Source: Spinacia oleracea
Lineage: Eukaryota > Streptophyta > Magnoliopsida > Caryophyllales > Amaranthaceae
DNA length: 64,000 nucleotides
NCBI RefSeq assembly: GCF_020520425.1
Contig: NC_079492.1
Coordinates: 66,889,671-66,953,670 of the forward strand
Direction: 5' to 3'
In this document: piece by piece, positions 33,697 to 58,800 of the stretch
Layout of the letters: each line of letters opens with the position of its first letter
Position numbering within the stretch: position 1 is the stretch's first letter
The notes under the pieces: generated by a model
The model's input: the letters and a program-made list of their open reading frames with translations, nothing else
Told to the model about the DNA's origin: nothing
Databases searched by the model: none
Made by a program: the position numbers and the translations under genes

Positions 33697-34010
33697 CACT
33701 AGTGGAAAAAGGCTTATTTGCATCCCCGCATTTGCCACGCCATTCTGAACATGTGACGCAAATGACAAATTTTAGCATAAAATTTAGTCATTTGCGTCGC
33801 AGCTTTGTTAAACTGCGACGCAAATGACTCTAGGATGCCCCCCAGAGTCATTTGCGTCGCAGATTAGTAAAACTGCGACGCAATTAACTCAATCAAGTGC
33901 GTCGCAGATTTACTAATCTGCGACGCAAATGACTCTGGGGGGCATCCTAGAGTCATTTGCGTCGCAGTTTAGTAATTCTGCGACGCAAATGATGTTTTGA
34001 ATTTTTCTAA
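33697..34010. repeat. 5' TIR and subterminal repeats of the CACTA element
   Basis: The TIR, about 28 bp with a few mismatches, is followed by repeated 'gtcatttgcgtcgcag' and its complement 'ctgcgacgcaaatgac', forming hairpins (for example 33787-33828 and 33896-33990). Such subterminal motifs are the transposase-binding regions in known CACTA elements; that role here is inferred. Confidence 0.88.
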
Positions 34011-34019
34011 AATTTAATT

Positions 34020-34918
34020 TTGTTGGCGCTAGCTCTCCAATGCGATATTCCACAGCGACCTAAATTGAAACCCAATTGCAAAAGCTTCACCCCTTCACTG
34101 CTTCAATTCCTTCCTCGGCCTTCCTCGTCCTCCGCCGTCAACCTCGTCCTCCGCCGTCAACCTCCGTCTTCCTCGACCTGCTGTTCGTCCTCCTGCCGCG
34201 TCAACCTCCTCTTCGCACAGCTCATTGTCCTCCAACTTCCTGCTCGTCGCCGCCCCCTGATCGTCGTTCAACCCCCGGCCTCTTCACAGGTCACTGTCGC
34301 CGCTTCCTCCTATACTGTCGCCGCTGCTTGCTAACGCCGTCGGCTGCCACGCCGCTGGCCCTCCTCTCTTCAATTGCTCCATCGATTAATTCGGTACATT
34401 TAAATTTTATTTTGTGGATATTATTTAATTGAATTTTAATTGTGCATTTTAATTATAATTGTGGATATTATGTTTGAATTTTAATGGTACATTTTAGTTG
34501 AATTTTAAGATTGAATTTTAATTGTGGATATTATTTAATTGAATTTTAATTGTGCACATTTAAGATTTAGGTTTTGTTGAATTTTAATTGTAGTTTTTGA
34601 TGAATTGTAATAGTTGGTTTTGTTGAAATTATTTGTTTATTACAATTAGGTTTTGTTGAATTAAGGTTATGAAATGAATTTTTGGGTTTGTGTAGGTTTA
34701 TGAGATGGTTTGTGTAGGTTATGAAATGATGTTTTGGGTTTGCTACAAAATTCGGGTTTGTGAATTTGTGATGTGAAATGAATTGTACTATGGGAACTTG
34801 TTATTAGTTATGGTAGGTTTTGTTGGAAGCCATGGATTTATAATGATATGAATAGCCTAGTTTATATTCTAACCTTTGACAAAATTTGGTCATATTGTTT
34901 TATCTTTAGTGGTTGAAA
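34020..34918 (+). other. Transcribed leader and probable 5' UTR intron of TNP2
   Basis: A pyrimidine-rich, low-complexity stretch (34080-34390) with a duplicated 'cctcgtcctccgccgtcaac' block is followed by 'attcg|gtacat' (donor at 34394) and an AT-rich intron ending 'tatctttag' at 34909. The start codon lies ten bases further on. The open frames in the pyrimidine-rich part show no domain. Confidence 0.5.
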
Positions 34919-37900
34919 ATGGATCGGAGTTGGATGTATGGTAGTAAACGATTTTCTACAAGGTTCTTACAAGGGATTCAAGAGTTCATTAAGGTTGCCT
35001 TGAAACATCAATCAGAACATGAATCAAGTTTAATTCTGTGTCCTTGTTGTGATTGCAATAATTCAAGGGGGTATCGGGATATTGATGATATTGTTGATCA
35101 CATAGTTCGTCGCGGTTTTAAGGGTAACTACACGACGTGGACATGGCATGGTGAGAGCATAGATCATGGGGCAAGTTCTAGTATGCCGAGCTCGAGTCAG
35201 CATAATCATTGTGATAATGGTGATGATAATGAAATTGAGGATGATATTGGTGTTGAAAGTGAGGAAGAAGAGGAGAAAGATAGGATAGATGATATGATGC
35301 ATGATGTGGAAGACCATCATTTCGTTGAGCGTCCCCATATGTATGATAGTATAATCAAAGCTTCCGCAACACCATTATATCCTGGTTCTACATAAACTGT
35401 ACTTGGTGTCGTCATCGAATATTTCAACTTAAAGGTGGAAAACGGTTGGACCAACAAGAGTTTTTCACAGTTTTTGGAGGCCACGTCTGGTAATCTTCCT
35501 GAAGGAAACAAACTTCCAAGGTCTAACTATGAGGCCCAGAAGCTTATGTGTCCTTTGGGTATGGATTATGAGAAGATACACGCGTGTCCAAATGATTGCG
35601 TGTTGTATCGAAAGCAGTATGCAAATCTGCATGAGTGTCCAAGATGCGGATTGTCCCGTTACAAGATCGTGGAGAATGATGCAACATCAACTAAGAAGAA
35701 ACCTTCTCCGGCTAAGGTGCTTTGGTATCTTCCAATTATACCAAGATTTAAGCGCCTTTTCTCAGAAGAGAAAACTGCAAAACTCTTGAGGTGGCATGCC
35801 GAAGGGAGGAAGAAAGATGGGTTAATGAGGCATCCTGCTGATTCTCCACAATGGAGGAACATTGATCGAAAGTACAAGGTCTTTAGGGAAGAAGTTCGGA
35901 ATCTCAGGCTTGGTCTTTGCACGGATGGAATGAACCCATTTGGGACACTTAGTACCCAATATAGCACTTGGCCGGTTCTTCTCACCATATACAATTTGCC
36001 TCCTTGGTTATGCATGAAGCGTAGATACATCATGTTGTCGCTCTTAATCTCTGGGCCTAAACAACCCGGAAATGACATAGATGTGTATCTAGAGCCACTC
36101 ATTGAAGATTTGAAATTGTTGTGGGATGAAGGGGTGTTGATGTTTGATGCATACACCAAAACCAATTTCACTTTACGTGCCATGATTTTTTGTACGATAA
36201 ATGATTTCCCGGCTTATGGAAATTTGTCAGGGTATTCTGTAAAGGGAAAGAAGGCATGTCCAGTTTGTCATGATGATTTGGTCTCGAGGCGCCTAAAATT
36301 TTGTGGGAAATATGTGTACATGGATTACCGGATGTATCTTCCTGAAGATCACCCATTTCGAAAAGAGAAGGAAGCTTTTAATGGAGAATTGGAGATGAGA
36401 GAAGCTCCTGCCCCCTTATGTGCGTGTGAGGTTTATGAACGGGTTAAAGACATTGAGACAGAGTTTGGTAAGCCTTATAAAGGTCAGCCAAGTGGTGGTT
36501 ACAAGAAGAGGTCTATCTTTTGGGATCTCCCATATTGGAGAGATTTGGAAGTTAGGCATTGTTTGGATGTAATGCATATTGAAAAAAATGTTTGTGATGC
36601 CATTGTTGGGACATTGTTGAATATGCAAGGGAAAACGAAGGATGGGCCTAAAGTTAGACAAGATATGGCTGCTATGGGTCGCTCCGAGTTGGCACCTCAA
36701 GAAAGGGGAAAACGCTGGTACCTTCCCCCAGCTTGTTTCACCTTGTCTAAAAAGGAGAAAGTTAGCTTTTGTGAGTCTTTGCATGGCTTAAAGGTCCCTG
36801 CCGGTTACTCTTCAAATTTTCGTAGACTTGTGTCCATGTCTGACTTGAAATTAGTTGGAATGAAATCTCATGATTGTCACGTGTTGATGCAACAATTGCT
36901 GCCGGTTGCAATTCGAGGGATATTGCCGCCACAAGTGAGGTATACCATTACAAGATTGTGTTTCTTTTTCAACACAATTTGTAGCAAGGTGATCAATCCA
37001 ACAATACTGGATGATTTGCAGGCTGATGTACTTGAGACCATGTGTCGGTTTGAAAAGTATTTTCCGCCATCATTCTTTGACATGATGCCTCATTTGATTA
37101 TTCATCTTGTTCGTGAAATTAAGCTTTGTGGGCCAGTTTGTATGAGGTACATGTATCCCTTTGAACGGGAAATGGGTACCTTGAAAGATAGAGTGATGAA
37201 TCCGGCCAAACCTGAAGCTAGTATTGTCCAACGAACCGTCGCGGAGGAAGTTGCTGCATGGGTTTCTCAATATATGGCACGTTTGAAAGAAGTCGGAGTA
37301 CCAAAGTCTAGACATGATGGGAGACTTGGGGGTCAAGGTACAATTGGCAAGAAAAGGATATCAATCAGTTCTGAAATGATGTGTAAGGTTGAGCTGTTTG
37401 TGGTGCAAAGTCTTAGTGAAGTCCATCCATACGTGGCTGAGCACATGAACTTTCTTAGAGAGCAATATCCTTCAAAAAATGGTCCTCAACTGATAAAAGA
37501 GCATAATCGTTCATTCCTCACATGGTTCAAGCGTCGAGTGATGGATCAATTTTTCGACACGCCTAATGAGGTATCTGACATGGTGAGATGGTTGGCATAT
37601 GGTCCTAAATGTCAAGTCATATCTTATGAGGGGTACGACATCAATGGCTATTCTTTTTACACGAAGCGACAAGATGACAAAACGACGATGCAAAAAAGTG
37701 GTGTTACGGCAATATGTTTGTCTTCAGAGTATGCTAGTGTAAAAGATAGAACACTTGTAGATAAGACGAACTCTTACTATGGAGTCATTGAAGAAATATT
37801 AGAGTTGGAATATAAGTATTTTAAGATTCCTCTATTCCGGTGCAAGTGGGTTGATATTAGTCGCGGTGTCAAAAAGGATGAACATGGGTACCTGACACTT

Positions 37901-38188
37901 GTAAACTTTAGTCGAGTTGGGCATCTTGCAGATCCTTTCATATTAGCATCACAGGCAAAACAAATCTTTTACATGGTTGACCCTGCCGATCGTAGTTGGT
38001 CAGTTGTTCTGGAAGGCAAAAGAAGAATACTTGGCGTTGAGGATGTAGATGATGAAGAAGAGTATGATGAGCAGTTTAATGAGATTCCACCTTCCTCCTG
38101 GCATATCCCTCAAATGATTGACGATGTTGACATGAGTTATACACGCCGAGATCATGATGAAGGATTTTATGTTGAAAAAGAGAAATAG
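34919..38188 (+). pseudogene. TNP2: CACTA TNP2-family transposase with one in-frame stop
   Basis: This is the DDE-type transposase of CACTA elements, which binds element ends and cuts them. From the ATG at 34919 the frame has an N-terminal transposase-associated domain (MDRSWM, then a Cys cluster CPCCDC). An acidic Glu/Asp linker follows (35220-35310), then the 'PLYPG' and 'YEKIHACPNDCVLYR' region. The TNP2 core has 'NDFPAYGNLSG' and 'DVMHIEKNVCD' (about 36200-36600). A DUF4218-type block (about 36835-37230; 'MYPFEREMG') and a DUF4216-type block (about 37770-38015) complete it. Without the stop it would be one exon of about 1,089 residues. TAA at 35393-35395, after codon 158, is the only break; both sides are in the same frame. 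A start downstream would lack the N-terminal domain. The product is thus probably inactive unless supplied in trans. Confidence 0.95.
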
Positions 38189-38241
38189 TGAGATAGGTAC
38201 TATTTTGGCAACTATTTTTTCACCAAGTTAATTTGTAGATT

Positions 38242-39731
38242 AGTTAAAAGTTGGGTTCGAAAACGTCATTTTTGCCTAAATATGTACTATAACGACCCAA
38301 TTACCCTTAAATGTGGAATAATAGATTAGTACGAGGCTTAGAAAGTTATAACTATGCATATGAGACATGTAATAAGTTTGAAAACATTCCTTAGGTTGTT
38401 TGGTTAAAAGTTGGGTTCGAAAATGTCATTTTTGCTTAAATATGTACTATAACGACCCAATTACCCTTAAATGTGGAATAATAGATTAGTATGAGGCTTA
38501 GAAAGTTATAACTATGCATATGAGACATGTAATAAGTTTGAAAACATTCCTTAGGTTGTTTGGTTAAAAGTTGGGTTCGAAAATGTCATTTTTGCCTAAA
38601 TATGTACTATAACGACCCAATTACCCTTAAATGTGGAATAATAGATTAGTACGAGGCTTAGAAAGTTATAACTATGCATATGAGACATGTAATAAGTTTG
38701 AAAACATTCCTTAGGTTGTTTGGTTAAAAGTTGGGTTCGAAAATGTCATTTTTGCCTAAATATGTACTATAACGACCCAATTACCCTTAAATGTGGAATA
38801 ATAGATTAGTACGAGGCTTAGAAAGTTATAACTATGCATATGAGACATGTAATAAGTTTAAAAACATTCCTTAGGTTGTTTGGTTAAAAGTTGGGTTCGA
38901 AAACGTCATTTTTGCCTAAATATGTACTATAACGACCCAATTACCCTTAAATGTAGAATAATAGATTAGTACGAGGCTTAGAAATTTATAACTATGCATA
39001 TGAGACATGTAATAAGTTTGAAAACATTCCTTAGGTTGTTTGGTTAAAAGTTGGGTTCGAAAATGTCATTTTTGCCTAAATATGTACTATAACGACCCAA
39101 TTACCCTTAAATGTGGAATAATAGATTAGTACGAGGCTTAGAAAGTTATAACTATGCATATGAGACATGTAACAAGTTTGAAAACATACCTTAGGTTCTT
39201 TGGTTCAAAGTTGGGTTCGAAAACGTCATTTTTGCCTAAATATGTACTATAACGACCCAATTAACCTTATATGTGGAATAATAGATTAGTACGAGGCTTA
39301 GAAAGTTATAACTATGCATATGAGACATGTAATAAGTTTGAAAACATTCCTTAGGTTCTTTGGTTCAAAGTTGGGTTCGAAAATGTCATTTTTGCCTAAA
39401 TATGTACTATAACGACCCAATTACCCTTAAATGTGGAATAATAGATTAGTACGAGGCTTAGAAAGTTATAACTATGCATATGAGACATGTAATAAGTTTG
39501 AAAACATTCCTTAGGTTGTTTGGTTAAAAGTTGGGTTCGAAAATGTCATTTTTGCCTAAATATGTACTATAACGACCCAATTACCCTTAAATGTGGAATA
39601 ATAGATTAGTACGAGACTTAGAAAGTTATAACTATGCATATGAGACATATAATAAGTTTGAAAACATTCCTTAGGTTCTTTGGTTCAAAGTTGGGTTCGA
39701 AAACATCATTTTTGCCTAAAAATGACCTAGG
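38242..39731. repeat. 160-bp satellite, array A (about 9 copies) between the two CACTA genes
   Basis: About nine head-to-tail 160-bp units with few differences. Compared with the consensus of array B, it differs at about 19 of 160 positions (about 88% identity). The last units drift toward the array B sequence ('ctttggttcaaag', then 'gaaaacatcatttttgcc' and 'aaaatgacctagg'), so the right edge is a hybrid of the two types. Confidence 0.97.
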
Positions 39732-39827
39732 AAAACGTCATTTTATGGGTTAGAATCGAAATAATGACAGCATGCATGATTGATGGTGTCTTTCATGGGT
39801 TTCGATCTGTTCCAAAATGTTGCAAAG

Positions 39828-40020
39828 CTCAGATCAGAACTGTGCTGATCAGTGCACAGAACTGATCAGAACTGACCGGTTCTATGCACTGATCTGCACA
39901 GCTCAGATCAGAAGCTGTGCAGATCAGTGTACAGAACTGATCAGAACTGACCAGTTCTATGCACTGATCTGCACAGTTCTGATCTGAGCTGTGCAGATCA
40001 GTGCACAGAACTGGTCAGTT
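39828..40020. repeat. Cluster of short direct and inverted repeats before the second CACTA gene
   Basis: 'agatcagaactg', 'ctgatcagtgcacagaactg' and their complements alternate for about 190 bases and can fold into several hairpins ('gctcagatcagaagctgtgc' and similar). It lies 75-260 bases upstream of the start codon at 40095. It could be a promoter or protein-binding region; that is inference. Confidence 0.8.
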
Positions 40021-40094
40021 CTTTATTTTTATTTTAAAATCCTGCTTTTGAAGGTATGTAATTTTGATGATTTTCCAATGCAGTAGCGTCAGGC

Positions 40095-43000
40095 ATGGAT
40101 GAAGATCAACACGCAAATTCAGGTCCTTCTAACAAATCACCAAATCAAGTGCCCCAAAAGCAAAAAAAAAAGCCAAGAGGCCCTACAAAAGGAATAAAAT
40201 CCATGTCCGGGGTTCCAAGAATAATTGAATGGGATCACTTGGACCGACCCACAGGGAAATGGGCAACGGATTACAAGAATCACATTGGCGAGATAAGTCG
40301 CGCAAAGGTTTCAATATTGATCAGAACCTGGGAAGATGTTTCACAAGGAATAAAAGACACTTTGTGGGAAGACGTCAAGGTAACCGGTTTTATTTTGGAA
40401 ATTCAGTTGTACATATCTACGTGTCTTTTTCATGTGCTAAAAGACTTTCTTGTTCCTTTTCTTTTTCTTTCATTTAGAGAGAATTTCATATCACAGATGA
40501 AACTAAGAAAGAAGTTGTCTTAAAGAGTTGTGATAAGCGTTTGAGGGAATTCAAATCAAGATTGACGACTGGTTGGATCCGGGGTACAAGAAAAAGGCCA
40601 AAAGATGAAAAGATGCCATATGATTTGTATAGTCATATAACTAAGGATATATGGAAGGAATTTGTGAAGATACGTACCTCCGAAGAAGCTGAGGTATAAA
40701 AATTATTCTTATTTAAAGTCTTGTTATAATCTAAGTTTTATTTTGTTGTAATAATTTCTTTTACCCCCCTAAAATTAGGAAATAAGTGAGAAAGCAAGAC
40801 AAAGTCAATCTTTCAACATATATCCTCATCATATGGGACAGAAATCATATGCTGAAATGACAAGTGAATGGCAGAGAAAAGGGTACATTCCCTCAGTTTC
40901 TTCGTCATCTGAAGGTTCCTCTGCGTCTACAATTTCTTCAAGTTTGCCGAGTAGGACATGTTTATGGCTTCTTGCAAGATCGGTACCAGATGAGAAAGGA
41001 AATCCTTACTTGCCGGATCAGGGCACACAAAAGGTCAAAGAAAATATTGTAAGTTCATTTAACAATTTTGCGTAATGTTGTGATTCCTCTAATTTCATAT
41101 ATGTTCTTAAATATGAAACCAAGTGTTGAACTTTTCTCAAAACCATTTGATTTCATGTAGGATGAATGGAAAAGGAAACAAGATGAAGGGGAATTTGTTC
41201 CCAAAAGTGCACGAGATGATGTCTTATTTCGTGCACTTGGTAAGACTAAAGAAGGGAGACCACTAACATTTGGTGGTGGAGTAGGCATCAAAGCTGTGTG
41301 GGGGACCGGAGAGCGGCGTAGCTTTCGACGGTATGGAGATGCGGAGATGGAGGAAATGGAAGCAAGAGTGACCAAAAGGGTCAAAGATGAGACAATACAA
41401 GAGATGAACTCCGAGATGGATGCCATGGTCATGGAGAAATTTATCACATTTGCTAAAGAACTTGGTGTCCAAATACCAAGCCATATGAGGATAGACGCAA
41501 ATGTTCATAGTAGTTGTCGTTCCGGGGGTTTAGATCCATTTGCCGACATTACGGTATGATAATTTGTGTTTTTCAAGTAATTTGTTTCTAGTTAATTCTA
41601 TTGAACTTTTCTAACATGTTACATTGTATTTGCGTTATTGTTCAAAATAAATAATAAGGAACCTGTCCCGTGCCATCTATACCTGAACATAGGCTCGGAG
41701 AAAGTCTTTGTTGCCTATGGTACCATATGTCCAGAGTTGCTCCTTGATCACCACAACGACGTCACGTCCGATAACGTGAAAGTGAGCGTTGATGATTTTG
41801 AGCCCGCGTACAAAGAAGCTCCCGTCCCCGTGCCTTCTCAATATATTAAGAAACTTTCTCAAGCTCATGGTACCTTCACTCAGTGGCCAAAGCATTTGGT
41901 GTCGCTTACGAATGAGGAGGTAACTAACATATGCATGATAATTTGAAGTAGAACTATTATACCATGTATGCTCACTAATATGTATATCGTTATTTGAAAA
42001 TCATACCTCAGGTAAACAAGCCTACAAGTAAAGAGCCTAAAGGGAAAGGGAACAAAGGGAAAGAGATAGTGGTTGGGGGAAGTGGAACAAAAGCGTCCAA
42101 CACTAAATCAAAAACCTATTTCCTTGAAAATTATAAAGTGCAAAATTTGAGTGGTAAGTGCAATGTGATGAAAACTATGATGTTGGGATTAAAAGAAGGG
42201 GAGCACGTTAAGGTACATTGCACTAAAAGGACATTCAATATGGAAAAGGACTTTGAAATTAGTGTCACCGTTGAAGACACCGATCAACTTCTCTCGGGAG
42301 CATGGCTCAATATATCAATAATACAAGTTTTTGTTACGTGAGTTACCTAAATTCATATTTTGCCCCTAAATTTGATTTTTATGATTGTCTTAACGTTCTT
42401 ACACTCTATATTATAGGGCTTTGAGTGAGTTGTGTTTTCACGATGATTGTCACCCCAATAGTATTGGATTCATGTGCCCGGAGATGATCTCGGCCACCAT
42501 GTTAAAGTCCGATGCAGATCGAATTCTATTGTACATGACGAGGTCCATGAGTGCACTTAGTTCTAAGACATTCATCTTATGTCCATACTACGAAAAGTAT
42601 GAAAATTACTTTGAACTTCGTTTTTAATTGATTGTTATAAATTTAACTTTTTTTTTTCTAACTACATACGTTTATTGTTTGTATGTAGGAGTCACTGGAT
42701 GCTTTTAGTTCTTTGCTTGTCTAAACGTGAGGTCTACATATTTGATTCTCAACAGAAGAAGAGAAATTTGATGATTAAGGAGCCACTAAACAAGTAAGTA
42801 AAGTATGCATATGAAAATGCCATTTTTGCCTAAATTTTTGCCTAAGGTTCTTTAGTTCAAAGTTGGGTTCGAAAACATCATTTTTGCCTAAAAATGACCT
42901 AGAACGACCCAATTAGCCTTAAATGTGAAATAATAGATTGTAAAGAGACTTAGAAAGTTATAACTAGGCATATGAGACGTGTAATAAGTTTGAAAACATT

Positions 43001-46000
43001 CCTTAGGTTCTTTGGTTCAAAGTTGGGTCCGAAAACATCATTTTTGCCTAAAAATGACCTAGGACGACCCAAATAGCCTTAAATGTGAAATAATAGATTG
43101 TAAAGGGCCTTAGAAAGTTATAACTATGCATATGAGACGTGTAATAAGTTTGAAAACATTCCTTAGGTTCTTTGGTTCAAAGTTGGGTTCGAAAACATCA
43201 TTTTTGCCTAAAAATGACCTAGGACGACCCAAATAGCCTTAAATGTGAAATAATAGATTGTAAAGAGACTTAGAAAGTTATAACTATGCATATGAGACGT
43301 GTAATAAGTTTGAAAATATTCCTTAGGTTCTTTGGTTCAAAGTTGGGTTCGAAAACATCATTTTTGCCTAAAAATGACCTAGAACGACCCAATTAGCCTT
43401 AAATATGAAATAATAGATTGTAAAGGGCCTTAGAAAGTTATAACTATGCATATGAGACGTGTAATAAGTTTGAAAACATTCCTTAGGTTCTTTGGTTCAA
43501 AGTTAGGTTCGAAAACATCATTTTTGCCTAAAAATGACCTAGGACGACCCAAATAGCCTTAAATGTGAAATAATAGATTGTAAAGAGACTTAGAAAGTTA
43601 TAACTATGCATATGACACGTGTAATAAGTTTGAAAACATTCCTTAGGTTCTTTGGTTCAAAGTTGGGTTCGAAAACATCATTTTTGCCTAAAAATGACCT
43701 AGGACGACCCAAATAGCCTTAAATGTGAAATAATAGATTGTAAAGAGACTTAGAAAGTTATAACTATGCATATGAGACGTGTAATAAGTTTGAAAACATT
43801 CCTTAGGTTCTTTGGTTCAAAGTTGGGTTCGAAAACATCATTTTTGCCTAAAAATGACCTAGGACGACCCAAATAGCCTTAAATGTGAAATAATAGATTG
43901 TAAAGGGCCTTAGAAAGTTATAACTATGCATATGAGACGTGTAATAAGTTTGAAAACATTCCTTAGGTTCTTTGGTTCAAAGTTGGGTTTAAAAACATCA
44001 TTTTTGCCTAAAAATGACCTAGAACGACCCAATTAGCCTTAAATGTGAAATAATAGATTGTAAAGGGCCTTAGAAAGTTATAACTATGCATATGAGACGT
44101 GTAATAAGTTTGAAAACATTCCTTAGGTTCTTTTGTTCAAAGTTGGGTTCGAAAACATCATTTTTTCCTAAAAATGACCTAGGACGACCCAAATAGCCTT
44201 AAATGTGAAATAATAGATTGTAAAGGGCCTTAGAAAGATATAACTATGCATATGAGACGTGTAATAATTTTGAAAACATTCCTTAGGTTCTTTGGTTCAA
44301 AGTTGGGTTCGAAAACATCATTTTTGCCTAAAAATGACCTAGGACGACCCAAATAGCCTTAAATGTGAAATAATAGATTGTAAAGAGACTTAGAAAGTTA
44401 TAACTATGCATATGAGACGTGTAATAAGTTTGAAAACATTCCTTAGGTTCTTTGGTTCAAAGTTGGGTTCGAAAACATCATTTTTGCCTAAAAATGACCT
44501 AGGACGACCCAAATAGCCTTAAATGTGAAATAATAGATTGTAAAGGGCCTTAGAAAGTTATAACTATGCATATGAGACGTGTAATAAGTTTGAAAACATT
44601 CCTTAGGTTCTTTGGTTCAAAGTTGGGTTCGAAAACATCATTTTTGCCTAAAAATGACCTAGGACGACCCAAATAGCCTTAAATGTGAAATAATAGATTG
44701 TAAAGGGCCTTAGAAAGTTATAACTATGCATATGAGACGTGTAATAAGTTTGAAAACATTCCTTAGGTTCTTTGGTTCAAAGTTGGGTTCGAAAACATCA
44801 TTTTTGCCTAAAAATGACCTAGGACGACCCAAATAGCCTTAAATGTGAAATAATAGATTGTAAAGGGCCTTAGAAAGTTATAACTATGCATATGAGACGT
44901 GTAATAAGTTTGAAAACATTCCTTAGGTTCTTTGGTTCAAAGTTGGGTTCGAAAACATCATTTTTGCCTAAAAATGACCTAGGACGACCCAAATAGCCTT
45001 AAATGTGAAATAATAGATTGTAAAGAGACTTAGAAAGTTATAACTATGCATATGAGACGTGTAATAAGTTTGAAAACATTCCTTAGGTTCTTTGGTTCAA
45101 AGTTGGGTTCGAAAACATCATTTTTGCCTAAAAATGACCTAGGACGACCCAAATAGCCTTAAATGTGAAATAATAGATTGTAAAGGGCCTTAGAAAGTTA
45201 TAACTATGCATATGAGACGTGTAATAAGTTTGAAAACATTCCTTAGGTTCTTTGGTTCAAAGTTGGGTTCGAAAACATCATTTTTGCCTAAAAATGACCT
45301 AGGACGACCCAAATAGCCTTAAATGTGAAATAATAGATTGTAAAGGGCCTTAGAAAGTTATAACTATGCATATGAGACGTGTAATAAGTTTGAAAACATT
45401 CCTTAGGTTCTTTGGTTCAAAGTTGGGTTTAAAAACATCATTTTTGCCTAAAAATGACCTAGAACGACCCAATTAGCCTTAAATGTGAAATAATAGATTG
45501 TAAAGGGCCTTAGAAAGTTATAACTATGCATATGAGACGTGTAATAAGTTTGAAAACATTCCTTAGGTTCTTTGGTTCAAAGTTGGGTTCGAAAACATCA
45601 TTTTTGCCTAAAAATGACCTAGAACGACCCAATTAGCCTTAAATGTGAAATAATAGATTGTAAAGGGCCTTAGAAAGTTATAACTATGCATATGAGACGT
45701 GTAATAAGTTTGAAAACATTCCTTAGGTTCTTTGGTTCAAAGTTGGGTTCTAAAACATCATTTTTGCCTAAAAATGACCTAGGACGACCCAAATAGCCTT
45801 AAATGTGAAATAATAGATTGTAAAGGGCCTTAGAAAGTTATAACTATGCATATGAGACGTGTAATAAGTTTGAAAACATTCCTTAGGTTCTTTGGTTCAA
45901 AGTTGGGTTCGAAAACATCATTTTTGCCTAAAAATGACCTAAGACGACCCAAATAGCCTTAAATGTGAAATAATAGATTGTAAAGGGCCTTAGAAAGTTA

Positions 46001-49000
46001 TAACTATGCATATGAGACGTGTAATAAGTTTGAAAACATTCCTTAGGTTCTTTGGTTCAAAGTTGGGTTCGAAAACATCATTTTTGCCTAAAAATGACCT
46101 AGGACGACCCAAATAGCCTTAAATGTGAAATAATAGATTGTAAAGGGCCTTAGAAAGTTATAACTATGCATATGAGACGTGTAATAAGTTTGAAAACATT
46201 CCTTAGGTTCTTTGGTTCAAAGTTGGGTTCGAAAACATCATTTTTGCCTAAAAATGACCTAGGACGACCCAAATAGCCTTAAATGTGAAATAATAGATTG
46301 TAAAGGGCCTTAGAAAGTTATAACTATGCATATGAGACGTGTAATAAGTTTGAAAACATTCCTTAGGTTCTTTGGTTCAAAGTTGGGTTCGAAAACATCA
46401 TTTTTGCCTAAAAATGACCTAGGACGACCCAAATAGCCTTAAATGTGAAATAATAGATTGTAAAGGGCCTTAGAAAGTTATAACTATGCATATGAGACGT
46501 GTAATAAGTTTGAAAACATTCCTTAGGTTCTTTGGTTCAAAGTTGGGTTTAAAAACATCATTTTTGCCTAAAAATGACCTAGAACGACCCAATTAGCCTT
46601 AAATGTGAAATAATAGATTGTAAAGGGCCTTAGAAAGTTATAACTATGCATATGAGACGTGTAATAAGTTTGAAAACATTCCTTAGGTTCTTTGGTTCAA
46701 AGTTGGGTTCGAAAACATCATTTTTGCCTAAAAATGACCTAGAACGACCCAATTAGCCTTAAATGTGAAATAATAGATTGTAAAGGGCCTTAGAAAGTTA
46801 TAACTATGCATATGAGACGTGTAATAAGTTTGAAAACATTCCTTAGGTTCTTTGGTTCAAAGTTGGGTTCTAAAACATCATTTTTGCCTAAAAATGACCT
46901 AGGACGACCCAAATAGCCTTAAATGTGAAATAATAGATTGTAAAGGGCCTTAGAAAGTTATAACTATGCATATGAGACGTGTAATAAGTTTGAAAACATT
47001 CCTTAGGTTCTTTGGTTCAAAGTTGGGTTCGAAAACATCATTTTTGCCTAAAAATGACCTAAGACGACCCAAATAGCCTTAAATGTGAAATAATAGATTG
47101 TAAAGGGCCTTAGAAAGTTATAACTATGCATATGAGACGTGTAATAAGTTTGAAAACATTCCTTAGGTTCTTTGGTTCAAAGTTGGGTTCGAAAACATCA
47201 TTTTTGCCTAAAAATGACCTAGGACGACCCAAATAGCCTTAAATGTGAAATAATAGATTGTAAAGGGCCTTAGAAAGTTATAACTATGCATATGAGACGT
47301 GTAATAAGTTTGAAAACATTCCTTAGGTTCTTTGGTTCAAAGTTGGGTTCGAAAACATCATTTTTGCCTAAAAATGACCTAGGACGACCCAAATAGCCTT
47401 AAATGTGAAATAATAGATTGTAAAGGGCCTTAGAAAGTTATAACTATGCATATGAGACGTGTAATAAGTTTGAAAACATTCCTTAGGTTCTTTGGTTCAA
47501 AGTTGGGTTCGAAAACATCATTTTTGCCTAAAAATGACCTAGGACGACCCAAATAGCCTTAAATGTGAAATAATAGATTGTAAAGAGACTTAGAAAGTTA
47601 TAACTATGCATATGAGACGTGTAATAAGTTTGAAAACATTCCTTAGGTTCTTTGGTTCAAAGTTGGGTTCGAAAACATCATTTTTGCCTAAAAATGACCT
47701 AGGACGACCCAAATAGCCTTAAATGTGAAATAATAGATTGTAAAGGGCCTTAGAAAGTTATAACTATGCATATGAGACGTGTAATAAGTTTGAAAACATT
47801 CCTTAGGTTCTTTGGTTCAAAGTTGGGTTCGAAAACATCATTTTTGCCTAAAAATGACCTAGGACGACCCAAATAGCCTTAAATGTGAAATAATAGATTG
47901 TAAAGGGCCTTAGAAAGTTATAACTATGCATATGAGACGTGTAATAAGTTTGAAAACATTCCTTAGGTTCTTTGGTTCAAAGTTGGGTTCAAAAACATCA
48001 TTTTTGCCTAAAAATGACCTAGGACGACCCAAATAGCCTTAAATGTGAAATAATAGATTGTAAAGGGCCTTAGAAAGTTATAACTATGCATATGAGACGT
48101 GTAATAAGTTTGAAAACATTCCTTAGGTTCTTTGGTTCAAAGTTGGGTTCGAAAACATCATTTTTGCCTAAAAATGACCTAGGACGACCCAAATAGCATT
48201 AAATGTGAAATAATAGATTGTAAAGGGCCTTAGAAAGTTATAACTATGCATATGAGACGTGTAATAAGTTTGAAAACATTCCTTAGGTTCTTTGGTTCAA
48301 AGTTGGGTTCGAAAACATCATTTTTGCCTAAAAATGACCTAGGACGACCCAAATAGCCTTAAATGTGAAATAATAGATTGTAAAGAGACTTAGAAAGTTA
48401 TAACTATGCATATGAGACGTGTAATAAGTTTGAAAACATTCCTTAGGTTCTTTGGTTCAAAGTTGGGTTCGAAAACATCATTTTTGCCTAAAAATGACCT
48501 AGGACGACCCAAATAGCCTTAAATGTGAAATAATAGATTGTAAAGGGCCTTAGAAAGTTATAACTATGCATATGAGACGTGTAATAAGTTTGAAAACATT
48601 CCTTAGGTTCTTTGGTTCAAAGTTGGGTTCGAAAACATCATTTTTGCCTAAAAATGACCTAGAACGACCCAATTAGCCTTAAATGTGAAATAATAGATTG
48701 TAAAGGGCCTTAGAAAGTTATAACTATGCATATGAGACGTGTAATAAGTTTGAAAACATTCCTTAGGTTCTTTGGTTCAAAGTTGGGTTCGAAAACATCA
48801 TTTTTGCCTAAAAATGACCTAGGACGACCCAAATAGCCTTAAATGTGAAATAATAGATTGTAAAGGGCCTTAGAAAGTTATAACTATGCATATGAGACGT
48901 GTAATAAGTTTGAAAACATTCCTTAGGTTCTTTGGTTCAAAGTTGGGTTCGAAAACATCATTTTTGCCTAAAAATGACCTAGGACGACCCAAATAGCCTT

Positions 49001-52000
49001 AAATGTGAAATAATAGATTGTAAAGAGACTTAGAAAGTTATAACTATGCATATGAGACGTGTAATAAGTTTGAAAACATTCGTTAGGTTCTTTGGTTCAA
49101 AGTTGGGTTCGAAAACATCATTTTTGCCTAAAAATGACCTAGGACGACCCAAATAGCCTTAAATGTGAAATAATAGATTGTAAAGGGCCTTAGAAAGTTA
49201 TAACTATGCATATGAGACGTGTAATAAGTTTGAAAACATTCCTTAGGTTCTTTGGTTCAAAGTTGGGTTCGAAAACATCATTTTTGCCTAAAAATGACCT
49301 AGGACGACCCAAATAGCCTTAAATGTGAAATAATAGATTGTAAAGGGCCTTAGAAAGTTATAACTATGCATATGAGACGTGTAATAAGTTTGAAAACATT
49401 CCTTAGGTTCTTTGGTTCAAAGTTGGGTTCGAAAACATCATTTTTGCCTAAAAATGACCTAGAACGACCCAATTAGCCTTAAATGTGAAATAATAGATTG
49501 TAAAGGGCCTTAGAAAGTTATAACTATGCATATGAGACGTGTAATAAGTTTGAAAACATTCCTTAGGTTCTTTGGTTCAAAGTTGGGTTCGAAAACATCA
49601 TTTTTGCCTAAAAATGACCTAGGACGACCCAAATAGCCTTAAATGTGAAATAATAGATTGTAAAGGGCCTTAGAAAGTTATAACTATGCATATGAGACGT
49701 GTAATAAGTTTGAAAACATTCCTTAGGTTCTTTGGTTCAAAGTTGGGTTCGAAAACATCATTTTTGCCTAAAAATGACATAGGACGACCCAAATTGCCTT
49801 AAATGTGAAATAATAGATTGTAAAGGGCCTTAGAAAGTTATAACTATGCATATGAGACGTGTAATAAGTTTGAAAACATTCCTTAGGTTCTTTGGTTCAA
49901 AGTTGGGTTCGAAAACATCATTTTTGCCTAAAAATGACCTAGGACGACCCAAATAGCCTTAAATGTGAAATAATAGATTGTAAAGGGCCTTAGAAAGTTA
50001 TAACTATGCATATGAGACGTGTAATAAGTTTGAAAACATTCCTTAGGTTCTTTGGTTCAAAGTTGGGTTCGAAAACATCATTTTTGCCTAAAAATGACCT
50101 AGGACGACCCAAATAGCCTTAAATGTGAAATAATAGATTGTAAAGGGCCTTAGAAAGGTATAACTATGCATATGAGACGTGTAATAAGTTTGAAAACATT
50201 CCTTAGGTTCTTTGGTTCAAAGTTGGGTTCGAAAACATCATTTTTGCCTAAAAATGACCTAGAACGACCCAATTAGCCTTAAATGTGAAATAATAGATTG
50301 TAAAGGGCCTTAGAAAGTTATAACTATGCATATGAGACGTGTAATAAGTTTGAAAACATTCCTTAGGTTCTTTGGTTCAAAGTTGGGTTCGAAAACATCA
50401 TTTTTGCCTAAAAATGACCTAGGACGACCCAATTAGCCTTAAATGTGAAATAATAGATTGTAAAGAGACTTAGAAAGTTATAACTATGCATATGAGACGT
50501 GTAATAAGTTTGAAAACATTCCTTAGGTTCTTTGGTTCAAAGTTGGGTTCGAAAACATCATTTTTGCCTAAAAATGACCTAGGACGACCCAAATAGCCTT
50601 AAATGTGAAATAATAGATTGTAAAGGGCCTTAGAAAGTTATAACTATGCATATGAGACGTGTAATAAGTTTGAAAACATTCCTTAGGTTCTTTGGTTCAA
50701 AGTTGGGTTCGAAAACATCATTTTTGCCTAAAAATGACCTAGGACGACCCAAATAGCCTTAAATGTGAAATAATAGATTGTAAAGAGACTTAGAAAGTTA
50801 TAACTATGCATATGAGACGTGTAATAAGTTTGAAAACATTCCTTAGGTTCTTTGGTTCAAAGTTGGGTTCGAAAACATCATTTTTGCCTAAAAATGACCT
50901 AGGACGACCCAAATAGCCTTAAATGTGAAATAATAGATTGTAAAGGGCCTTAGAAAGTTATAACTATGCATATGAGACGTGTAATAAGTTTGAAAACATT
51001 CCTTAGGTTCTTTGGTTCAAAGTTGGGTTCGAAAACATCATTTTTGCCTAAAAATGACCTAGGACGACCCAAATAGCCTTAAATGTGAAATAATAGATTG
51101 TAAAGGGCCTTAGAAAGTTATAACTATGCATATGAGACGTGTAATAAGTTTGAAAACATTCCTTAGGTTCTTTGGTTCAAAGTTGGGTTCAAAAACATCA
51201 TTTTTGCCTAAAAATGACCTAGGACGACCCAAATAGCCTTAAATGTGAAATAATAGATTGTAAAGGGCCTTAGAAAGTTATAACTATGCATATGAGACGT
51301 GTAATAAGTTTGAAAACATTCCTTAGGTTCTTTGGTTCAAAGTTGGGTTCGAAAACATCATTTTTGCCTAAAAATGACCTAGGACGACCCAAATAGCATT
51401 AAATGTGAAATAATAGATTGTAAAGGGCCTTAGAAAGTTATAACTATGCATATGAGACGTGTAATAAGTTTGAAAACATTCCTTAGGTTCTTTGGTTCAA
51501 AGTTGGGTTCGAAAACATCATTTTTGCCTAAAAATGACCTAGGACGACCCAAATAGCCTTAAATGTGAAATAATAGATTGTAAAGAGACTTAGAAAGTTA
51601 TAACTATGCATATGAGACGTGTAATAAGTTTGAAAACATTCCTTAGGTTCTTTGGTTCAAAGTTGGGTTCGAAAACATCATTTTTGCCTAAAAATGACCT
51701 AGGACGACCCAAATAGCCTTAAATGTGAAATAATAGATTGTAAAGGGCCTTAGAAAGTTATAACTATGCATATGAGACGTGTAATAAGTTTGAAAACATT
51801 CCTTAGGTTCTTTGGTTCAAAGTTGGGTTCGAAAACATCATTTTTGCCTAAAAATGACCTAGAACGACCCAATTAGCCTTAAATGTGAAATAATAGATTG
51901 TAAAGGGCCTTAGAAAGTTATAACTATGCATATGAGACGTGTAATAAGTTTGAAAACATTCCTTAGGTTCTTTGGTTCAAAGTTGGGTTCGAAAACATCA

Positions 52001-54575
52001 TTTTTGCCTAAAAATGACCTAGGACGACCCAAATAGCCTTAAATGTGAAATAATAGATTGTAAAGGGCCTTAGAAAGTTATAACTATGCATATGAGACGT
52101 GTAATAAGTTTGAAAACATTCCTTAGGTTCTTTGGTTCAAAGTTGGGTTCGAAAACATCATTTTTGCCTAAAAATGACCTAGGACGACCCAAATAGCCTT
52201 TAATGTGAAATAATAGATTGTAAAGAGACTTAGAAAGTTATAACTATGCATATGAGACGTGTAATAAGTTTGAAAACATTCGTTAGGTTCTTTGGTTCAA
52301 AGTTGGGTTCGAAAACATCATTTTTGCCTAAAAATGACCTAGGACGACCCAAATAGCCTTAAATGTGAAATAATAGATTGTAAAGGGCCTTAGAAAGTTA
52401 TAACTATGCATATGAGACGTGTAATAAGTTTGAAAACATTCCTTAGGTTCTTTGGTTCAAAGTTGGGTTCGAAAACATCATTTTTGCCTAAAAATGACCT
52501 AGGACGACCCAAATAGCCTTAAATGTGAAATAATAGATTGTAAAGGGCCTTAGAAAGTTATAACTATGCATATGAGACGTGTAATAAGTTTGAAAACATT
52601 CCTTAGGTTCTTTGGTTCAAAGTTGGGTTCGAAAACATCATTTTTGCCTAAAAATGACCTAGAACGACCCAATTAGCCTTAAATGTGAAATAATAGATTG
52701 TAAAGGGCCTTAGAAAGTTATAACTATGCATATGAGACGTGTAATAAGTTTAAAAACATTCCTTAGGTTCTTTGGTTCAAAGTTGGGTTCGAAAACATCA
52801 TTTTTGCCTAAAAATGACCTAGGACGACCCAAATAGCCTTAAATGTGAAATAATAGATTGTAAAGGGCCTTAGAAAGTTATAACTATGCATATGAGACGT
52901 GTAATAAGTTTGAAAACATTCCTTAGGTTCTTTGGTTCAAAGTTGGGTTCGAAAACATCATTTTTGCCTAAAAATGACATAGGACGACCCAAATAGCCTT
53001 AAATGTGAAATAATAGATTGTAAAGGGCCTTAGAAAGTTATAACTATGCATATGAGACGTGTAATAAGTTTGAAAACATTCCTTAGGTTCTTTGGTTCAA
53101 AGTTGGGTTCGAAAACATCATTTTTGCCTAAAAATGACCTAGGACGACCCAAATAGCCTTAAATGTGAAATAATAGATTGTAAAGGGCCTTAGAAAGTTA
53201 TAACTATGCATATGAGACGTGTAATAAGTTTGAAAACATTCCTTAGGTTCTTTGGTTCAAAGTTGGGTTCGAAAACATCATTTTTGCCTAAAAATGACCT
53301 AGGACGACCCAAATAGCCTTAAATGTGAAATAATAGATTGTAAAGGGCCTTAGAAAGTTATAACTATGCATATGAGACGTGTAATAAGTTTGAAAACATT
53401 CCTTAGGTTCTTTGGTTCAAAGTTGGGTTCGAAAACATCATTTTTGCCTAAAAATGACCTAGAACGACCCAATTAGCCTTAAATGTGAAATAATAGATTG
53501 TAAAGGGCCTTAGAAAGTTATAACTATGCATATGAGACGTGTAATAAGTTTGAAAACATTCCTTAGGTTCTTTGGTTCAAAGTTGGGTTCGAAAACATCA
53601 TTTTTGCCTAAAAATGACCTAGGACGACCCAATTAGCCTTAAATGTGAAATAATAGATTGTAAAGAGACTTAGAAAGTTATAACTATGCATATGAGACGT
53701 GTAATAAGTTTGAAAACATTCCTTAGGTTCTTTGGTTCAAAGTTGGGTTCGAAAACATCATTTTTGCCTAAAAATGACCTAGGACGACCCAAATAGCCTT
53801 AAATGTGAAATAATAGATTGTAAAGGGCCTTAGAAAGTTATAACTATGCATATGAGACGTGTAATAAGTTTGAAAACATTCCTTAGGTTCTTTGGTTCAA
53901 AGTTGGGTTCGAAAACATCATTTTTGCCTAAAAATGACCTAGAACGACCCAATTAGCCTTAAATGTGACTACTACGTATATAATTGCATTTACATGTGTA
54001 AACAAAGTATATAATTGCACTTACATGTAAAATATTCTTTGCATTTACATGTGTAAACAAAGTATATATAATTGCATATTTTATCGAATGTGTAGTGCTT
54101 TTCGGAGTTACAAGAGACTAGGTGGACAATCTAAGGGAACTAAATTAACATGGATTCCAGCACAGGTATATATATATATAATTAGTTTATTATTTACCTA
54201 AGAAATAAGTTTTTCAAAATTATAACATACAATGTGATAGAAATTTTACTTGTGTTATTTATTTTAATGCATTTAGTGTGCTCAACAACCGGGATCAGTA
54301 GATTGTGGCTACTACGTCATGCGTTTTATGTACGACATAATAATGAATCATGGTAATAGTCAAGATCTTACTAAGGTATGTTCTCATAAACTACGTACTT
54401 TATATAATAAATTGAAGTACACAAAACTATTATATTGATCAATCGTTGATAAATTGAATTATTTACACTTTTTTAGGATTTTTCAAGAACATTGCCCTAT
54501 TCACCGGAGGAGATTAATGAGGTGAAAGATTTTTGGGCAGATTACTTCATGAACAATGTCGAATTTTTAGCTTAA
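40095..54575 (+). CDS. CACTA second gene: plant transposase-associated protein with C-terminal Ulp1/C48 protease domain
   Basis: Exons inferred from splice sites and frame: 40095-40379, 40478-40693, 40779-41048, 41161-41553, 41659-41919, 42012-42337, 42417-42596, 42689-42793, 54096-54165, 54277-54375 and 54477-54575. They join without a stop, giving 767 residues. The N-terminus is basic (KKKPRGPTKG, about 25-35). Exons 1-4 match the plant En/Spm transposase-associated type (Ptta/Transposase_24-like). A DUF8039-like region and a Lys-rich linker follow. The C-terminus is a Ulp1-like cysteine protease: His in SHWMLL and Asp in YIFDS (exon 8), Gln in CAQQPG and Cys in VDCGYY (exon 10). Ulp1 proteases cleave SUMO; what the CACTA version cuts is not known. 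Intron 8 (42794-54095) is swollen to 11.3 kb by satellite. All four catalytic residues are present, so the frame seems kept by selection or is young. Confidence 0.88.
42840..53968. repeat. 160-bp satellite, array B (about 70 copies, 11.1 kb) inside intron 8
   Basis: Head-to-tail units of exactly 160 bp, with very few indels over about 11 kb. Two main variant pairs segregate: 'taaagggcct' or 'taaagagact', and 'aggacgacccaaatagcc' or 'agaacgacccaattagcc'. Rarer variants mark larger duplications of 7 and 20 units. The array begins about 45 bases after the exon 8 donor and ends about 125 bases before the exon 9 acceptor, so both splice sites are preserved. Confidence 0.98.
53969..54085. repeat. 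Short direct repeats at the right edge of array B
   Basis: Three partial copies of a block with 'gtatataattgca', 'tttacatgtgtaaacaaa' lie between the end of the satellite and the exon 9 acceptor. Confidence 0.7.
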
Positions 54576-54839
54576 TTTGTAATATGAACTTGATCTCTAG
54601 CTAGCTACGTACCTTTGTTGTAATAATTTTATGTTTGTTGTAACATGTTGGTTGATCGATCTATGACGAATTTAATTGCCTTTTATTGGGAACGTTAATT
54701 ACGTTGTAAACTTTAGTGACAGGTATTAATTATAAATGTATTCCCGGTATTGGGAATGAAGCGTCTAATTTCAAAGACGATCATGTCGGAATTTCCAACT
54801 AAAATATTAAAAAACGAATATTTTTTTTAAAAAAAATAA
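54576..54839 (+). other. 3' UTR of the second CACTA gene
   Basis: AT-rich sequence directly after the stop codon up to the subterminal repeats. No clear polyadenylation signal could be singled out. Confidence 0.5.
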
Positions 54840-55315
54840 GTTATTTGCAACGCACGTTAGCTCAATGTGCGAGGCAAATGACTTAATTTTTTGGCGCTAA
54901 AATTGTCATTTGCGTCGCACATTAAGCTATTGTGCGTGGCAAATGACTTTTTTTTTTGCGCCTAAAAGTTATTTGCGTCGCACATTTAACTAATGTGCGA
55001 CGCAAATAACTTTTCAGGCATGGTGCTGAAAAGTCATTTGCAACGCACATTAGCTAAATGTGCATTGCAAATGAACCTTATTTGCGTCGCACATTTAGCT
55101 AATGTGCGTTGCAAATAACTTTTCAGCACCATGCCTGAAAAGTTATTTGCGTCGCACATTAGCTAAATGTGCGACGCAAATAAGGTTCATTTGCGTCGCA
55201 CAAATGTGCGACGCAAATGACTTTTAGTCATTTGCGTCAAGAGCTTTTGCCACGCACGATGTGCGACGCAAATGTGCTTAAAAGTGCGATGCAAATGACC
55301 CTTTTTCCACTAGTG
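54840..55315. repeat. 3' subterminal repeats and TIR of the CACTA element
   Basis: 'tcatttgcgtcgcacatt' type motifs and their complements alternate over about 470 bases, with a large palindrome centred near 55070 ('aatgtgcattgcaaatgaac' on one side and mirrored sequences on the other). The motif is a variant of that at the 5' end ('cgtcgcac' in place of 'cgtcgcag'). The terminal TIR reads CACTAGTGGAAAAAGGGTC on the minus strand. Confidence 0.9.
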
Positions 55316-58500: not shown

Positions 58501-58800
58501 TTGAATAAAAAGTAGATGAAAATAGAAGGAACTAATTACCGAATGTTGATGAAGAACAGAAAAAAATCACAATCACACTTTCGAAACCTAAATCGAACAC
58601 AAAAAAGCGAAATTAGTACGAACAAGAGACGAACAAAGAAAAACAAGTAAAAATGCAAAAATCTTACAGAAATTGAAGCAATCGAAGAGAAGATCAAAGA
58701 GAATAAGCTTTCTCTCTCCTAAAATGGAAGAAGTCGAACGGTTTTCTCTCTCTAAGTGGTGAACCGTGATTTGAAAATAAGGAAAAGAGTGGGAAATAGG

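What the first reader, a model, noticed from the sequence alone, without database searches (positions are those of the whole stretch)
42840..53968. An 11-kb satellite array sits inside an intron that splits a protease active site
About 70 head-to-tail copies of a 160-bp unit fill intron 8 of the second CACTA gene. The exon before it carries the catalytic His and Asp, and the exons after it carry Gln and Cys. Both splice sites and the reading frame survive. Tandem repeats are known in plant CACTA elements, but an expansion of this scale within an intron of the Ulp1-like gene, while the protein stays open, is unusual. It offers a route by which a mobile element can create and spread satellite DNA.
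Basis: partly seen in the sequence, partly recalled or inferred. Interest (0 to 1): 0.88.

Follow-up and report, generated by a model that had tools for sequence, protein, structure and literature searches.

The report
Length-variable satellite inside a transposon intron
In the spinach genome a jumping gene carries a repeated 160-letter DNA block in an intron between the two halves of a protease's active site; the array sits at the same point in the copies that keep that intron's start but varies from 4 to 109 repeats, which makes it a natural record of how repetitive DNA grows and travels on a mobile element.

Summary
42841-53968 is 69.55 exact 160-bp units in intron 8 of gene 2 of a complete 21.6-kb CACTA element (33697-55315, TSD TTT). 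Exon 8 encodes His646/Asp663, exon 10 Gln706/Cys712; the 11-exon, 767-codon frame is open. The host is Spinacia, very probably S. oleracea.
The genome changes the interpretation. The array is constitutive for this family: 176 left- and 192 right-junction sites (0 in controls), and 22 of 22 newly read copies found with an exon-8 probe carry it. In 76 coordinate-paired copies it holds 4-109 units, mostly in whole-unit steps; the window is second longest, and the two giants expanded independently. A sister family has a satellite-free 93-bp intron at the same point (3 of 3 copies). One annotated spinach protein equals the splice across such an intron. All 37 loci I could group from the array probe's printed rows are in CACTA copies; no free satellite was found.
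A quinoa CACTA with a 171-bp array is the closest precedent. Verdict: real, new variant of a known kind. Transcription is untested.

The parts
33697..55315 (+). complete CACTA element, 21,619 bp; TIR CACTAGTGGAAAAAGG, TSD TTT
   Evidence: TIR and flanks; two held copies with both exact TIRs in view, L021 and L022, show 3-bp TSDs ACA and ATT
33697..34040 (.). 5' TIR and subterminal repeats
   Evidence: 8 TTTGCGTCGCA-like motifs (<=1 mismatch) at 33752-33989
34922..35392 (+). gene 1, transposase-associated domain PF13963, followed by in-frame TAA at 35393-35395
   Evidence: Pfam E 3.9e-22; ORF list
35396..38188 (+). gene 1 continued: transposase PF02992, DUF4218, DUF4216
   Evidence: Pfam; a 99% identical 1084-aa protein without that stop is in the protein database (P0014)
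38243..39735 (.). array 1: about 9.3 units of type-1 160-bp monomer, last partial unit (39669-39735) type 2
   Evidence: TRF, monomer typing and edge sequence
39821..40018 (.). 75-bp minisatellite upstream of gene 2, length-variable in other copies
   Evidence: TRF; repeated matches in copies
40095..42793 (+). gene 2 exons 1-8 (40095-40379, 40478-40693, 40779-41048, 41161-41553, 41659-41919, 42012-42337, 42417-42596, 42689-42793); exon 8 has His646 and Asp663
   Evidence: splice model; PF03004 E 1.4e-06 (28.9 bits, cut-off 28.7) and PF02902 E 1.8e-10 on the spliced protein; residues
42794..54095 (+). intron 8, 11,302 bp, GT-AG
   Evidence: donor matches 8 of 9 consensus positions, the 694 GT sites in the array at most 7 (one site; 71 have 6); sister intron 93 bp
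42804..42840 (.). degenerate satellite-derived edge starting 10 bp after the donor
   Evidence: 11-bp exact match TATGCATATGA (15 of 2000 shuffles as long) and a 23-bp 95.7% match to type 1 at 42813-42835
42841..53968 (.). array 2: 69.55 units of type-2 160-bp monomer with a 20-unit block duplication and a possible 7-unit one
53969..54095 (.). intron 8 tail with 31-bp short repeats, conserved in copies; last about 62 bp homologous to the sister intron
54096..54575 (+). gene 2 exons 9-11 (54096-54165, 54277-54375, 54477-54575); exon 10 has Gln706 and Cys712
54838..55315 (.). 3' subterminal repeats and TIR
   Evidence: 11 TTTGCGTCGCA-like motifs

Best explanation
A Jozin-like CACTA transposon family of spinach carries a resident 160-bp satellite. 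A seed of it entered a normal, roughly 93-bp intron 8 of the Ulp1-like gene after the split from a sister family (shown: the sister's satellite-free intron and the common junctions; that it happened once is inferred). The array then grows and shrinks by whole units, through in-register unequal exchange or replication slippage and by block duplication (shown: most lengths are n x 160 + 88 or 92, and block repeats; the molecular event is inferred). Transposition has carried it to the 176-192 junction sites now seen (sites shown, route inferred from TIRs and TSDs). Splicing removes it, so array length has little or no effect on the protein and is tolerated (inferred; frame, splice sites and one gene model agree). 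The second array upstream of gene 2 can recombine with the first and delete exons 1-8, giving a derivative without the His/Asp half (product shown in one copy). The 69-unit and 109-unit arrays are independent outgrowths.
For: Same junctions: of 28 array-probed loci, 24 have the left junction at window 42840, and 25 of 25 with that side in view have the right junction at 53969. Of 22 further copies found with an exon-8 probe (20 of them picked because the array probe had not printed them), 22 of 22 show the left junction and 21 of 21 in view the right one. Junction patterns: 176 and 192 sites, 0 in reversed-pattern controls. 76 paired copies: 66 have lengths = 88 or 92 mod 160; 70 have 4-16 units, the rest 22, 25, 28, 30, 69, 109 (44 copies read in sequence). 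Sister family (75-80% nt identity): 93-bp intron in 3 of 3 copies with both exons, same first 13 bp, homologous last about 62 bp, best satellite match E 0.44 (length counted by hand). Block duplication: 15 consecutive units differ at 2 sites at lag 20 against a mean of 30, and the 1,732-bp exact run exceeds the longest in 200 unit-order shuffles, 1,514 bp. The two giants share no exact in-register run over 604 bp; the larger has runs of 1,642 and 1,472 bp at lags 6 and 10, shuffle maximum 1,251 of 60. Array1/array2 fusion in L028: five type-1 units run straight into type-2 units. Gene 2: 15 of 15 copies with both halves have 2304 nt without indels, 12 of 15 fully open, the four catalytic residues in 15 of 15. 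P0004 = splice product of the L025 copy, letter for letter, across a 1,706-bp intron. P0001 (quinoa) and P0002 (spinach) align without a gap across the exon 8/9 junction.
Against: No RNA was seen; P0004 is a database gene model, may be ab initio, and its copy (L025) has lost the His part of exon 8. Other models (P0005 cluster, 9 members) start inside the intron-8 tail, as if exons 9-11 were a separate gene, though none of 19 held copies tested gives P0005 letter for letter. The 15 copies used for the frame had passed a filter (both halves held, each in one unbroken match), which removed copies with large deletions. Among them dN/dS is about 1.1 (37 non-synonymous, 11 synonymous, 3 stops; changes shared by two or more copies 9 and 5, ratio 0.6), so selection for the protein is not shown. 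P0002 lacks the His stretch and has Tyr for the Cys. The source of the seed and the order of the two arrays are unknown. Copies are 99.5% identical on average, so conserved junctions partly reflect youth. The 7-unit repeat (1,437-bp run) lies within the shuffle range. Ten of 76 lengths are off the 88/92 residues, by 1 to 36 bp.
Confidence: 0.82

Rival explanations
1. Capture: a pre-existing genomic satellite was inserted into the element as a ready-made array (the reading its authors give for the quinoa CACTA array).
For: Precedent in PMC8978399 (passages). Outside the arrays the unit's only clear match in this window is the array's own edge. Two arrays with 12% different units could be two captures. 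Two type-1 loci (C1:43.24 Mb, C4:29.32 Mb) could not be placed next to gene-2 parts.
Against: No array outside CACTA among the 37 loci grouped from the array probe's printed rows (placed), and 27 of 29 type-1 loci grouped lie near gene-2 exon or junction hits. One fixed position and whole-unit length steps mean that later size changes happened in place.
Confidence: 0.15
2. The array breaks the gene: exon 8 is not joined to exon 9 in long-array copies, and exons 9-11 are expressed, if at all, from their own start at 54049.
For: An in-frame ATG at 54049 opens into exon 9, with a stop just upstream at 54028; database proteins of the P0005 cluster (9 members) begin with this peptide.
Against: P0004 joins exons 8 and 9 exactly at the predicted junction across an array. 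Donor GT kept in 22 of 23 copies where the exon-8 end string was found, acceptor in 25 of 25. The exon 8 donor beats the array's GT sites by consensus count.
Confidence: 0.15
3. Assembly artefact: the array or its length is wrong.
For: 28 of 69 units are identical, so length could be mis-assembled; no reads were available.
Against: The same array, junctions and unit ladder recur in 76 paired copies on contigs C1-C6. The window array has a non-periodic variant order and its own block duplication. No N in the window.
Confidence: 0.04

Closest known systems
C. quinoa CACTA element with a 171-bp satDNA array (PMC8978399)
   Same: Complete CACTA of the same plant family; one long array (32.5 units, 5.5 kb) towards the 3' end; same array family in three further scaffolds' CACTA elements; FISH evenly dispersed.
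   Different: The authors place the array after the predicted coding sequence and call it captured; unit 171 bp. Similarity to the 160-bp unit is not established (37-bp local match, 10 of 2000 shuffles as good; circular global match 52 and 8 of 300). No intron location, length ladder or pre-satellite state in the parts read.
CficCl-61-40 minisatellite from tnp2 of CACTA elements, Chenopodium (PMC7320549, passages)
   Same: CACTA-associated origin of satellite arrays in Amaranthaceae.
   Different: About 40-bp unit from coding tnp2 fragments, arrays attached to broken tnp2; here a 160-bp noncoding unit inside elements with open genes.
Jozin CACTA elements, domain architecture type 4 (PMC8978399, sections 6-7)
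   Same: CACTAGT-type TIR, TATTTGCGTC-type subterminal motif, TAD + Transposase_21 + DUF4218 + DUF4216 + Transposase_24 + Peptidase_C48; 8.3-10.1 kb, against 9.0 kb here without the arrays.
   Different: No intron array in the parts read; membership of one family not tested by tree.
Satellite-filled giant introns of Drosophila Y fertility genes (PMC6508621, listing and start of abstract only)
   Same: Satellite DNA in introns of protein genes that are expressed.
   Different: Host genes, megabase size, special expression programme; here a transposon gene with kilobase arrays at many sites.
Rice genes with intronic heterochromatin regulated by OsIBM2 (PMC7145194, abstract)
   Same: Plants can transcribe genes with long repeat-bearing introns.
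   Different: Intronic TEs in host genes; whether this machinery acts here is not tested.

Membership tests
CACTA (EnSpm) DNA transposon | TIR beginning CACTA at both ends | tested here: met
   16-bp identical TIR at 33697 and 55315
CACTA (EnSpm) DNA transposon | 3-bp target site duplication | tested here: met
   TTT in the window; ACA and ATT in L021 and L022, the held copies with both exact TIRs in view
CACTA (EnSpm) DNA transposon | tnp2 transposase PF02992 | tested here: met
   E 2.2e-91; preceded by an in-frame TAA in this copy
CACTA (EnSpm) DNA transposon | subterminal direct and inverted repeats | tested here: met
   19 motif copies, 8 left and 11 right, none elsewhere in the window at <=1 mismatch
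Jozin-type CACTA family | sequence clade with Chenopodium Jozin | not tested
   TIR, motif and domain set agree with the text of PMC8978399; Jozin sequences not held
Ulp1 / C48 protease | catalytic domain PF02902 | tested here: met
   41.5 bits, cut-off 20.7; best PDB hits SENP8 and Ulp1, E about 1e-4
Ulp1 / C48 protease | His, Asp, Gln, Cys at aligned positions | tested here: met
   alignment to SENP8/Ulp1, present in 15 of 15 copies; residue roles recalled
Ulp1 / C48 protease | fold | tested here: inconclusive
   AlphaFold2 of the quinoa relative P0001: mean pLDDT 35
Ulp1 / C48 protease | protease activity | not testable with these tools
   needs protein
Satellite DNA | long head-to-tail arrays of a homogeneous unit | tested here: met
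   69.55 units and 109.55 units (17,528 bp)
Satellite DNA | independent chromosomal arrays outside a carrier element | tested here: inconclusive
   0 found among 37 type-2 loci, 2 of 29 type-1 loci not placed (C1:43.24 Mb, C4:29.32 Mb); printed rows only, and the search scores only the best candidates
Published spinach satDNAs (SpSat02-05, StuSat01-158-s, SolSat01-171-s, SteSat01-99-s; PMC7840529) | sequence identity | not tested
   only accession numbers MN918725-MN918731 are in the passages read; the 21-bp SpSat01-21 is printed but was not compared by a tool

The most novel reading that the evidence does not exclude
The two arrays form a self-contained switch. Intron-8 array length sets how much complete protease mRNA a copy makes, through chromatin, early polyadenylation or splicing, and array1 x array2 recombination turns full copies into derivatives that keep the ends and the Cys half but lose the His/Asp half. 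The satellite would then be a working part of the transposon's own copy-number control, kept in the family for that reason, rather than a passenger.
Probability: 0.1. Interest if true: 0.85.

Novelty: new variant of a known kind. Interest (0 to 1): 0.6.

Why it matters
Satellite arrays are usually seen after they have grown and lost their origin. Here there is a graded series in one genome: an array-free sister intron of 93 bp, copies at one fixed site with 4-16 units, a few with 22-30, and two independent giants of 69 and 109. That makes the growth and recombination of a satellite measurable copy by copy, and shows that a long array can ride in a transposon gene without breaking its frame. 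It also offers a natural series to test how intron repeat number affects splicing and silencing in plants.

Tried and rejected
CpG decay in the array as a sign of methylation: 10 of 90 mismatches and 3 of 27 distinct changes at CpG; too few, dropped. Common origin with the quinoa 171-bp unit: local match 10 of 2000 shuffles as good (1 of 300 and 26 of 300 with plain shuffles), circular global match 52 of 300 (type 2) and 8 of 300 (type 1) as good; left open. Purifying selection among copies: not found. AlphaFold2 of P0001: mean pLDDT 35, not used, no fold search run. The unit in viral contigs and genome contigs: 0. My first list of array-broken deletions (note) included L021; its breakpoint lies in the intron flank, not in the array, so it was dropped. 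Remaining: L001, L002, L016, L026 and L028, 5 of the 28 array-probed loci; for L026 only a 42-bp satellite remnant remains. In the table the first one or two rows of intron arrays are edge artefacts of the anchor and were not read as units. rows for L004, L037 and L047 lose register at an indel; their lengths were used, their unit distances not.

Counting notes: one search used the places printed (100 of 192 and 100 of 176), all 40 and 13 of the 40; 76 pairs formed and 37 of 113 left junctions stayed unpaired, at least in part because the printed lists are cut. The 37 loci and 29 are my grouping of printed rows (about 150 of 228 and of 384 matches). Of the 37, 28 were read in sequence and 9 on C4 were placed by exon or junction hits. 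The frame test used 14 of the 28 array-probed loci plus the window; the other 14 were dropped because the stretch held lacked one half (L001-L008) or gene 2 was broken into pieces by a deletion (L010, L016, L021, L022, L025, L028). Host: four contig lengths equal those printed for spinach proteins; a fifth (P0113, 127,367,889) equals none printed here (C5 is 127,326,777).


Full report
WHAT IS THERE. The window holds one complete CACTA element, 33697-55315, with identical 16-bp TIRs and a TTT target duplication and 19 subterminal motif copies, 8 left and 11 right. Gene 1 has the transposase-associated domain and, behind an in-frame TAA at 35393-35395, PF02992, DUF4218 and DUF4216. A 99% identical 1084-aa protein without that stop is in the protein database, so intact copies exist. 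Gene 2 has 11 exons (40095-54575), a 2304-nt open CDS, and ten introns: nine of 79-112 bp and intron 8 of 11,302 bp. The protein matches PF03004 (28.9 bits, cut-off 28.7) and PF02902. By alignment with SENP8 and Ulp1 (residue roles recalled), His646 and Asp663 are encoded by exon 8, Gln706 and Cys712 by exon 10.

THE ARRAYS. Intron 8 is filled by 69.55 units of 160 bp from 42841 to 53968; 21 sequence variants among 69 full units, 28 units identical. Satellite-derived sequence starts about 10 bp after the donor. A second array, 38243-39735, lies between genes 1 and 2; its unit (type 1) differs from the intron unit (type 2) at 19 of 160 positions. Its last partial unit is type 2, and the intron edge carries a type-1 piece. 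Without both arrays the element would be 8,998 bp, inside the 8.3-10.1 kb given for Chenopodium and quinoa Jozin-type elements (PMC8978399, section 6).

HOST. The close protein matches are Spinacia oleracea and Chenopodium quinoa. Four contig lengths of the assembly (136525004, 160043976, 189052256, 151450279) equal those printed for named spinach proteins; the length printed for a fifth spinach protein (P0113, 127367889) does not (C5 is 127326777). The window is C6:66889671-66953670 of that assembly.

THE FAMILY. A 321-bp probe from the array hit 37 loci by my grouping of the printed rows (the list is cut and only the best candidates are scored). Of 28 read in sequence, 24 have the left junction at window position 42840, and 25 of 25 with that side in view have the right junction at 53969; the nine others are placed by exon or junction hits. 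To avoid choosing by the array, exons 7-8 were used as probe: 40 places scored of 238 candidates, all printed as 100%. Of these I read 22 further copies, 20 of them because the array probe had not printed them: 22 of 22 show the array at the left junction and 21 of 21 in view at the right one. Junction patterns with up to 2 mismatches occur 176 times (left) and 192 times (right), 0 times in the reversed control.

LENGTH LADDER. In 44 copies read in sequence and 76 copies paired by coordinates (overlapping with the 44), array 2 has n x 160 + 88 or 92 bp in 66 of 76; the other ten are off by 1 to 36 bp. Seventy have 4-16 units (mode 8), then 22, 25, 28, 30, 69 (window) and 109. The 109-unit copy at C1:25.78-25.80 Mb has a 17,702-bp intron 8 but lacks element positions 41196-42357, so its gene 2 is broken. 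The window array contains a 20-unit block duplication: 2 differences in 15 units against a mean of 30, with an exact run of 1,732 bp against at most 1,514 in 200 unit-order shuffles. A 7-unit repeat (1,437-bp run) is within the shuffle range. The 109-unit array has its own block repeats at lags 6 and 10 (runs 1,642 and 1,472 bp, shuffle maximum 1,251 of 60) and shares no exact in-register run over 604 bp with the window. So the two giants grew independently.

BEFORE THE SATELLITE. A sister family in the same genome, found with P0009, has intron 8 at the same place with 93 bp in 3 of 3 copies that hold both exons (L053, L054, L056; L055 lacks exon 8). Its first 13 bp equal the window's and its last about 62 bp are homologous to the window's intron tail. 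Its best satellite match has E 0.44. The array therefore most likely entered a normal intron of this family; the source of the first unit is not known.

DOES THE GENE SURVIVE? 15 of 15 copies (window included) with both halves held in unbroken matches have the 2304-nt spliced length without indels, 12 of 15 are fully open, and all keep His, Asp, Gln and Cys; 14 of the 28 array-probed loci were not usable, six of them because of deletions. Donor GT is kept in 22 of 23 copies where the exon-8 end string was found and the acceptor in 25 of 25. Quinoa P0001 and spinach P0002 align across the exon 8/9 junction without a gap; P0002 itself lacks the His stretch and has Tyr for the Cys. P0004, an annotated spinach protein, is letter for letter what the L025 copy gives if exon 8 is joined to exon 9 across a 1,706-bp intron with a 1,532-bp array; L025 has lost the start of exon 8, with the His. 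Against this: P0005-type models start in the intron tail, no RNA was available, and changes among copies look neutral (dN/dS about 1.1, changes shared by copies 0.6 on 14 events), as expected for young copies (99.5% identical).

WHAT THE TWO ARRAYS DO TO THE ELEMENT. In L028 five type-1 units run directly into type-2 units and exons 1-8 are gone, the product expected from recombination between array 1 and array 2. L001, L002, L016 and L026 have a deletion end in or at an array. That is 5 of 28 array-probed loci; the breakage mechanism of the last four is not known.

COMPARISON. A quinoa CACTA with a 171-bp x 32.5 array near its 3' end is described as carrying a captured satellite, found in CACTA elements of three further scaffolds (PMC8978399; outline, passages and sections 6-7 read). 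A 40-bp satellite from tnp2 fragments is described for the same genus (PMC7320549, passages). Spinach satellites of 21-324 bp are known from reads and FISH (PMC7840529, passages); all but the 21-bp one are given there by accession only, so identity with StuSat01-158-s is untested. I saw no paper on an array in a CACTA intron among those listed by the searches (open-licence PMC only; titles and abstract starts, passages of eight papers). Rice genes with repeat-bearing introns and fly genes with satellite introns are transcribed (PMC7145194 abstract; PMC6508621 listing); this is analogy only.

VERDICT. It is a new variant of a known kind (CACTA elements that carry satellite arrays). That it seeds free satellite DNA, or that array length regulates the protease, is not shown.

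Noticed in passing
window 35393-35395: In-frame TAA in gene 1 of this copy between the TAD and tnp2 parts; a near-identical intact protein exists (P0014).
   Followed up: partly
window 39821-40018: 75-bp minisatellite upstream of gene 2 that also seems to vary in copy number between element copies.
   Followed up: no
window 19067-19717 and 27924-28574: Very similar 0.65-kb stretches about 8.86 kb apart in the same orientation (similar ORFs), perhaps LTRs of a retrotransposon.
   Followed up: no
L010 and L016, element positions 41196-41206: Two copies have a deletion starting within about 10 bp of the same point in exon 4: possible breakage hotspot or shared ancestor.
   Followed up: no
G000:C4:33849425-33853904: Type-1 array of about 28 units near CACTA intron-8 junctions at C4:33844143-33846074: array 1 can also grow large.
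   Followed up: no
G000:C1:43242756-43244035 and G000:C4:29323815-29324294: Type-1 arrays with no gene-2 hit nearby in the printed lists: the only candidates for free or strongly deleted arrays.
   Followed up: no
window 57376-57843 and 58113-58512: Two other tandem repeats with units of 159 and 151 bp, 2.9 and 2.6 copies, outside the element.
   Followed up: no
window 60775-61392: ORF with a Nakanori-like domain (PF21230, E 6e-25).
   Followed up: no
P0011 (spinach, contig 151450279): Annotated protein joining the start of gene 2 exon 1 to exon 10: looks like a deletion derivative annotated as a gene.
   Followed up: no
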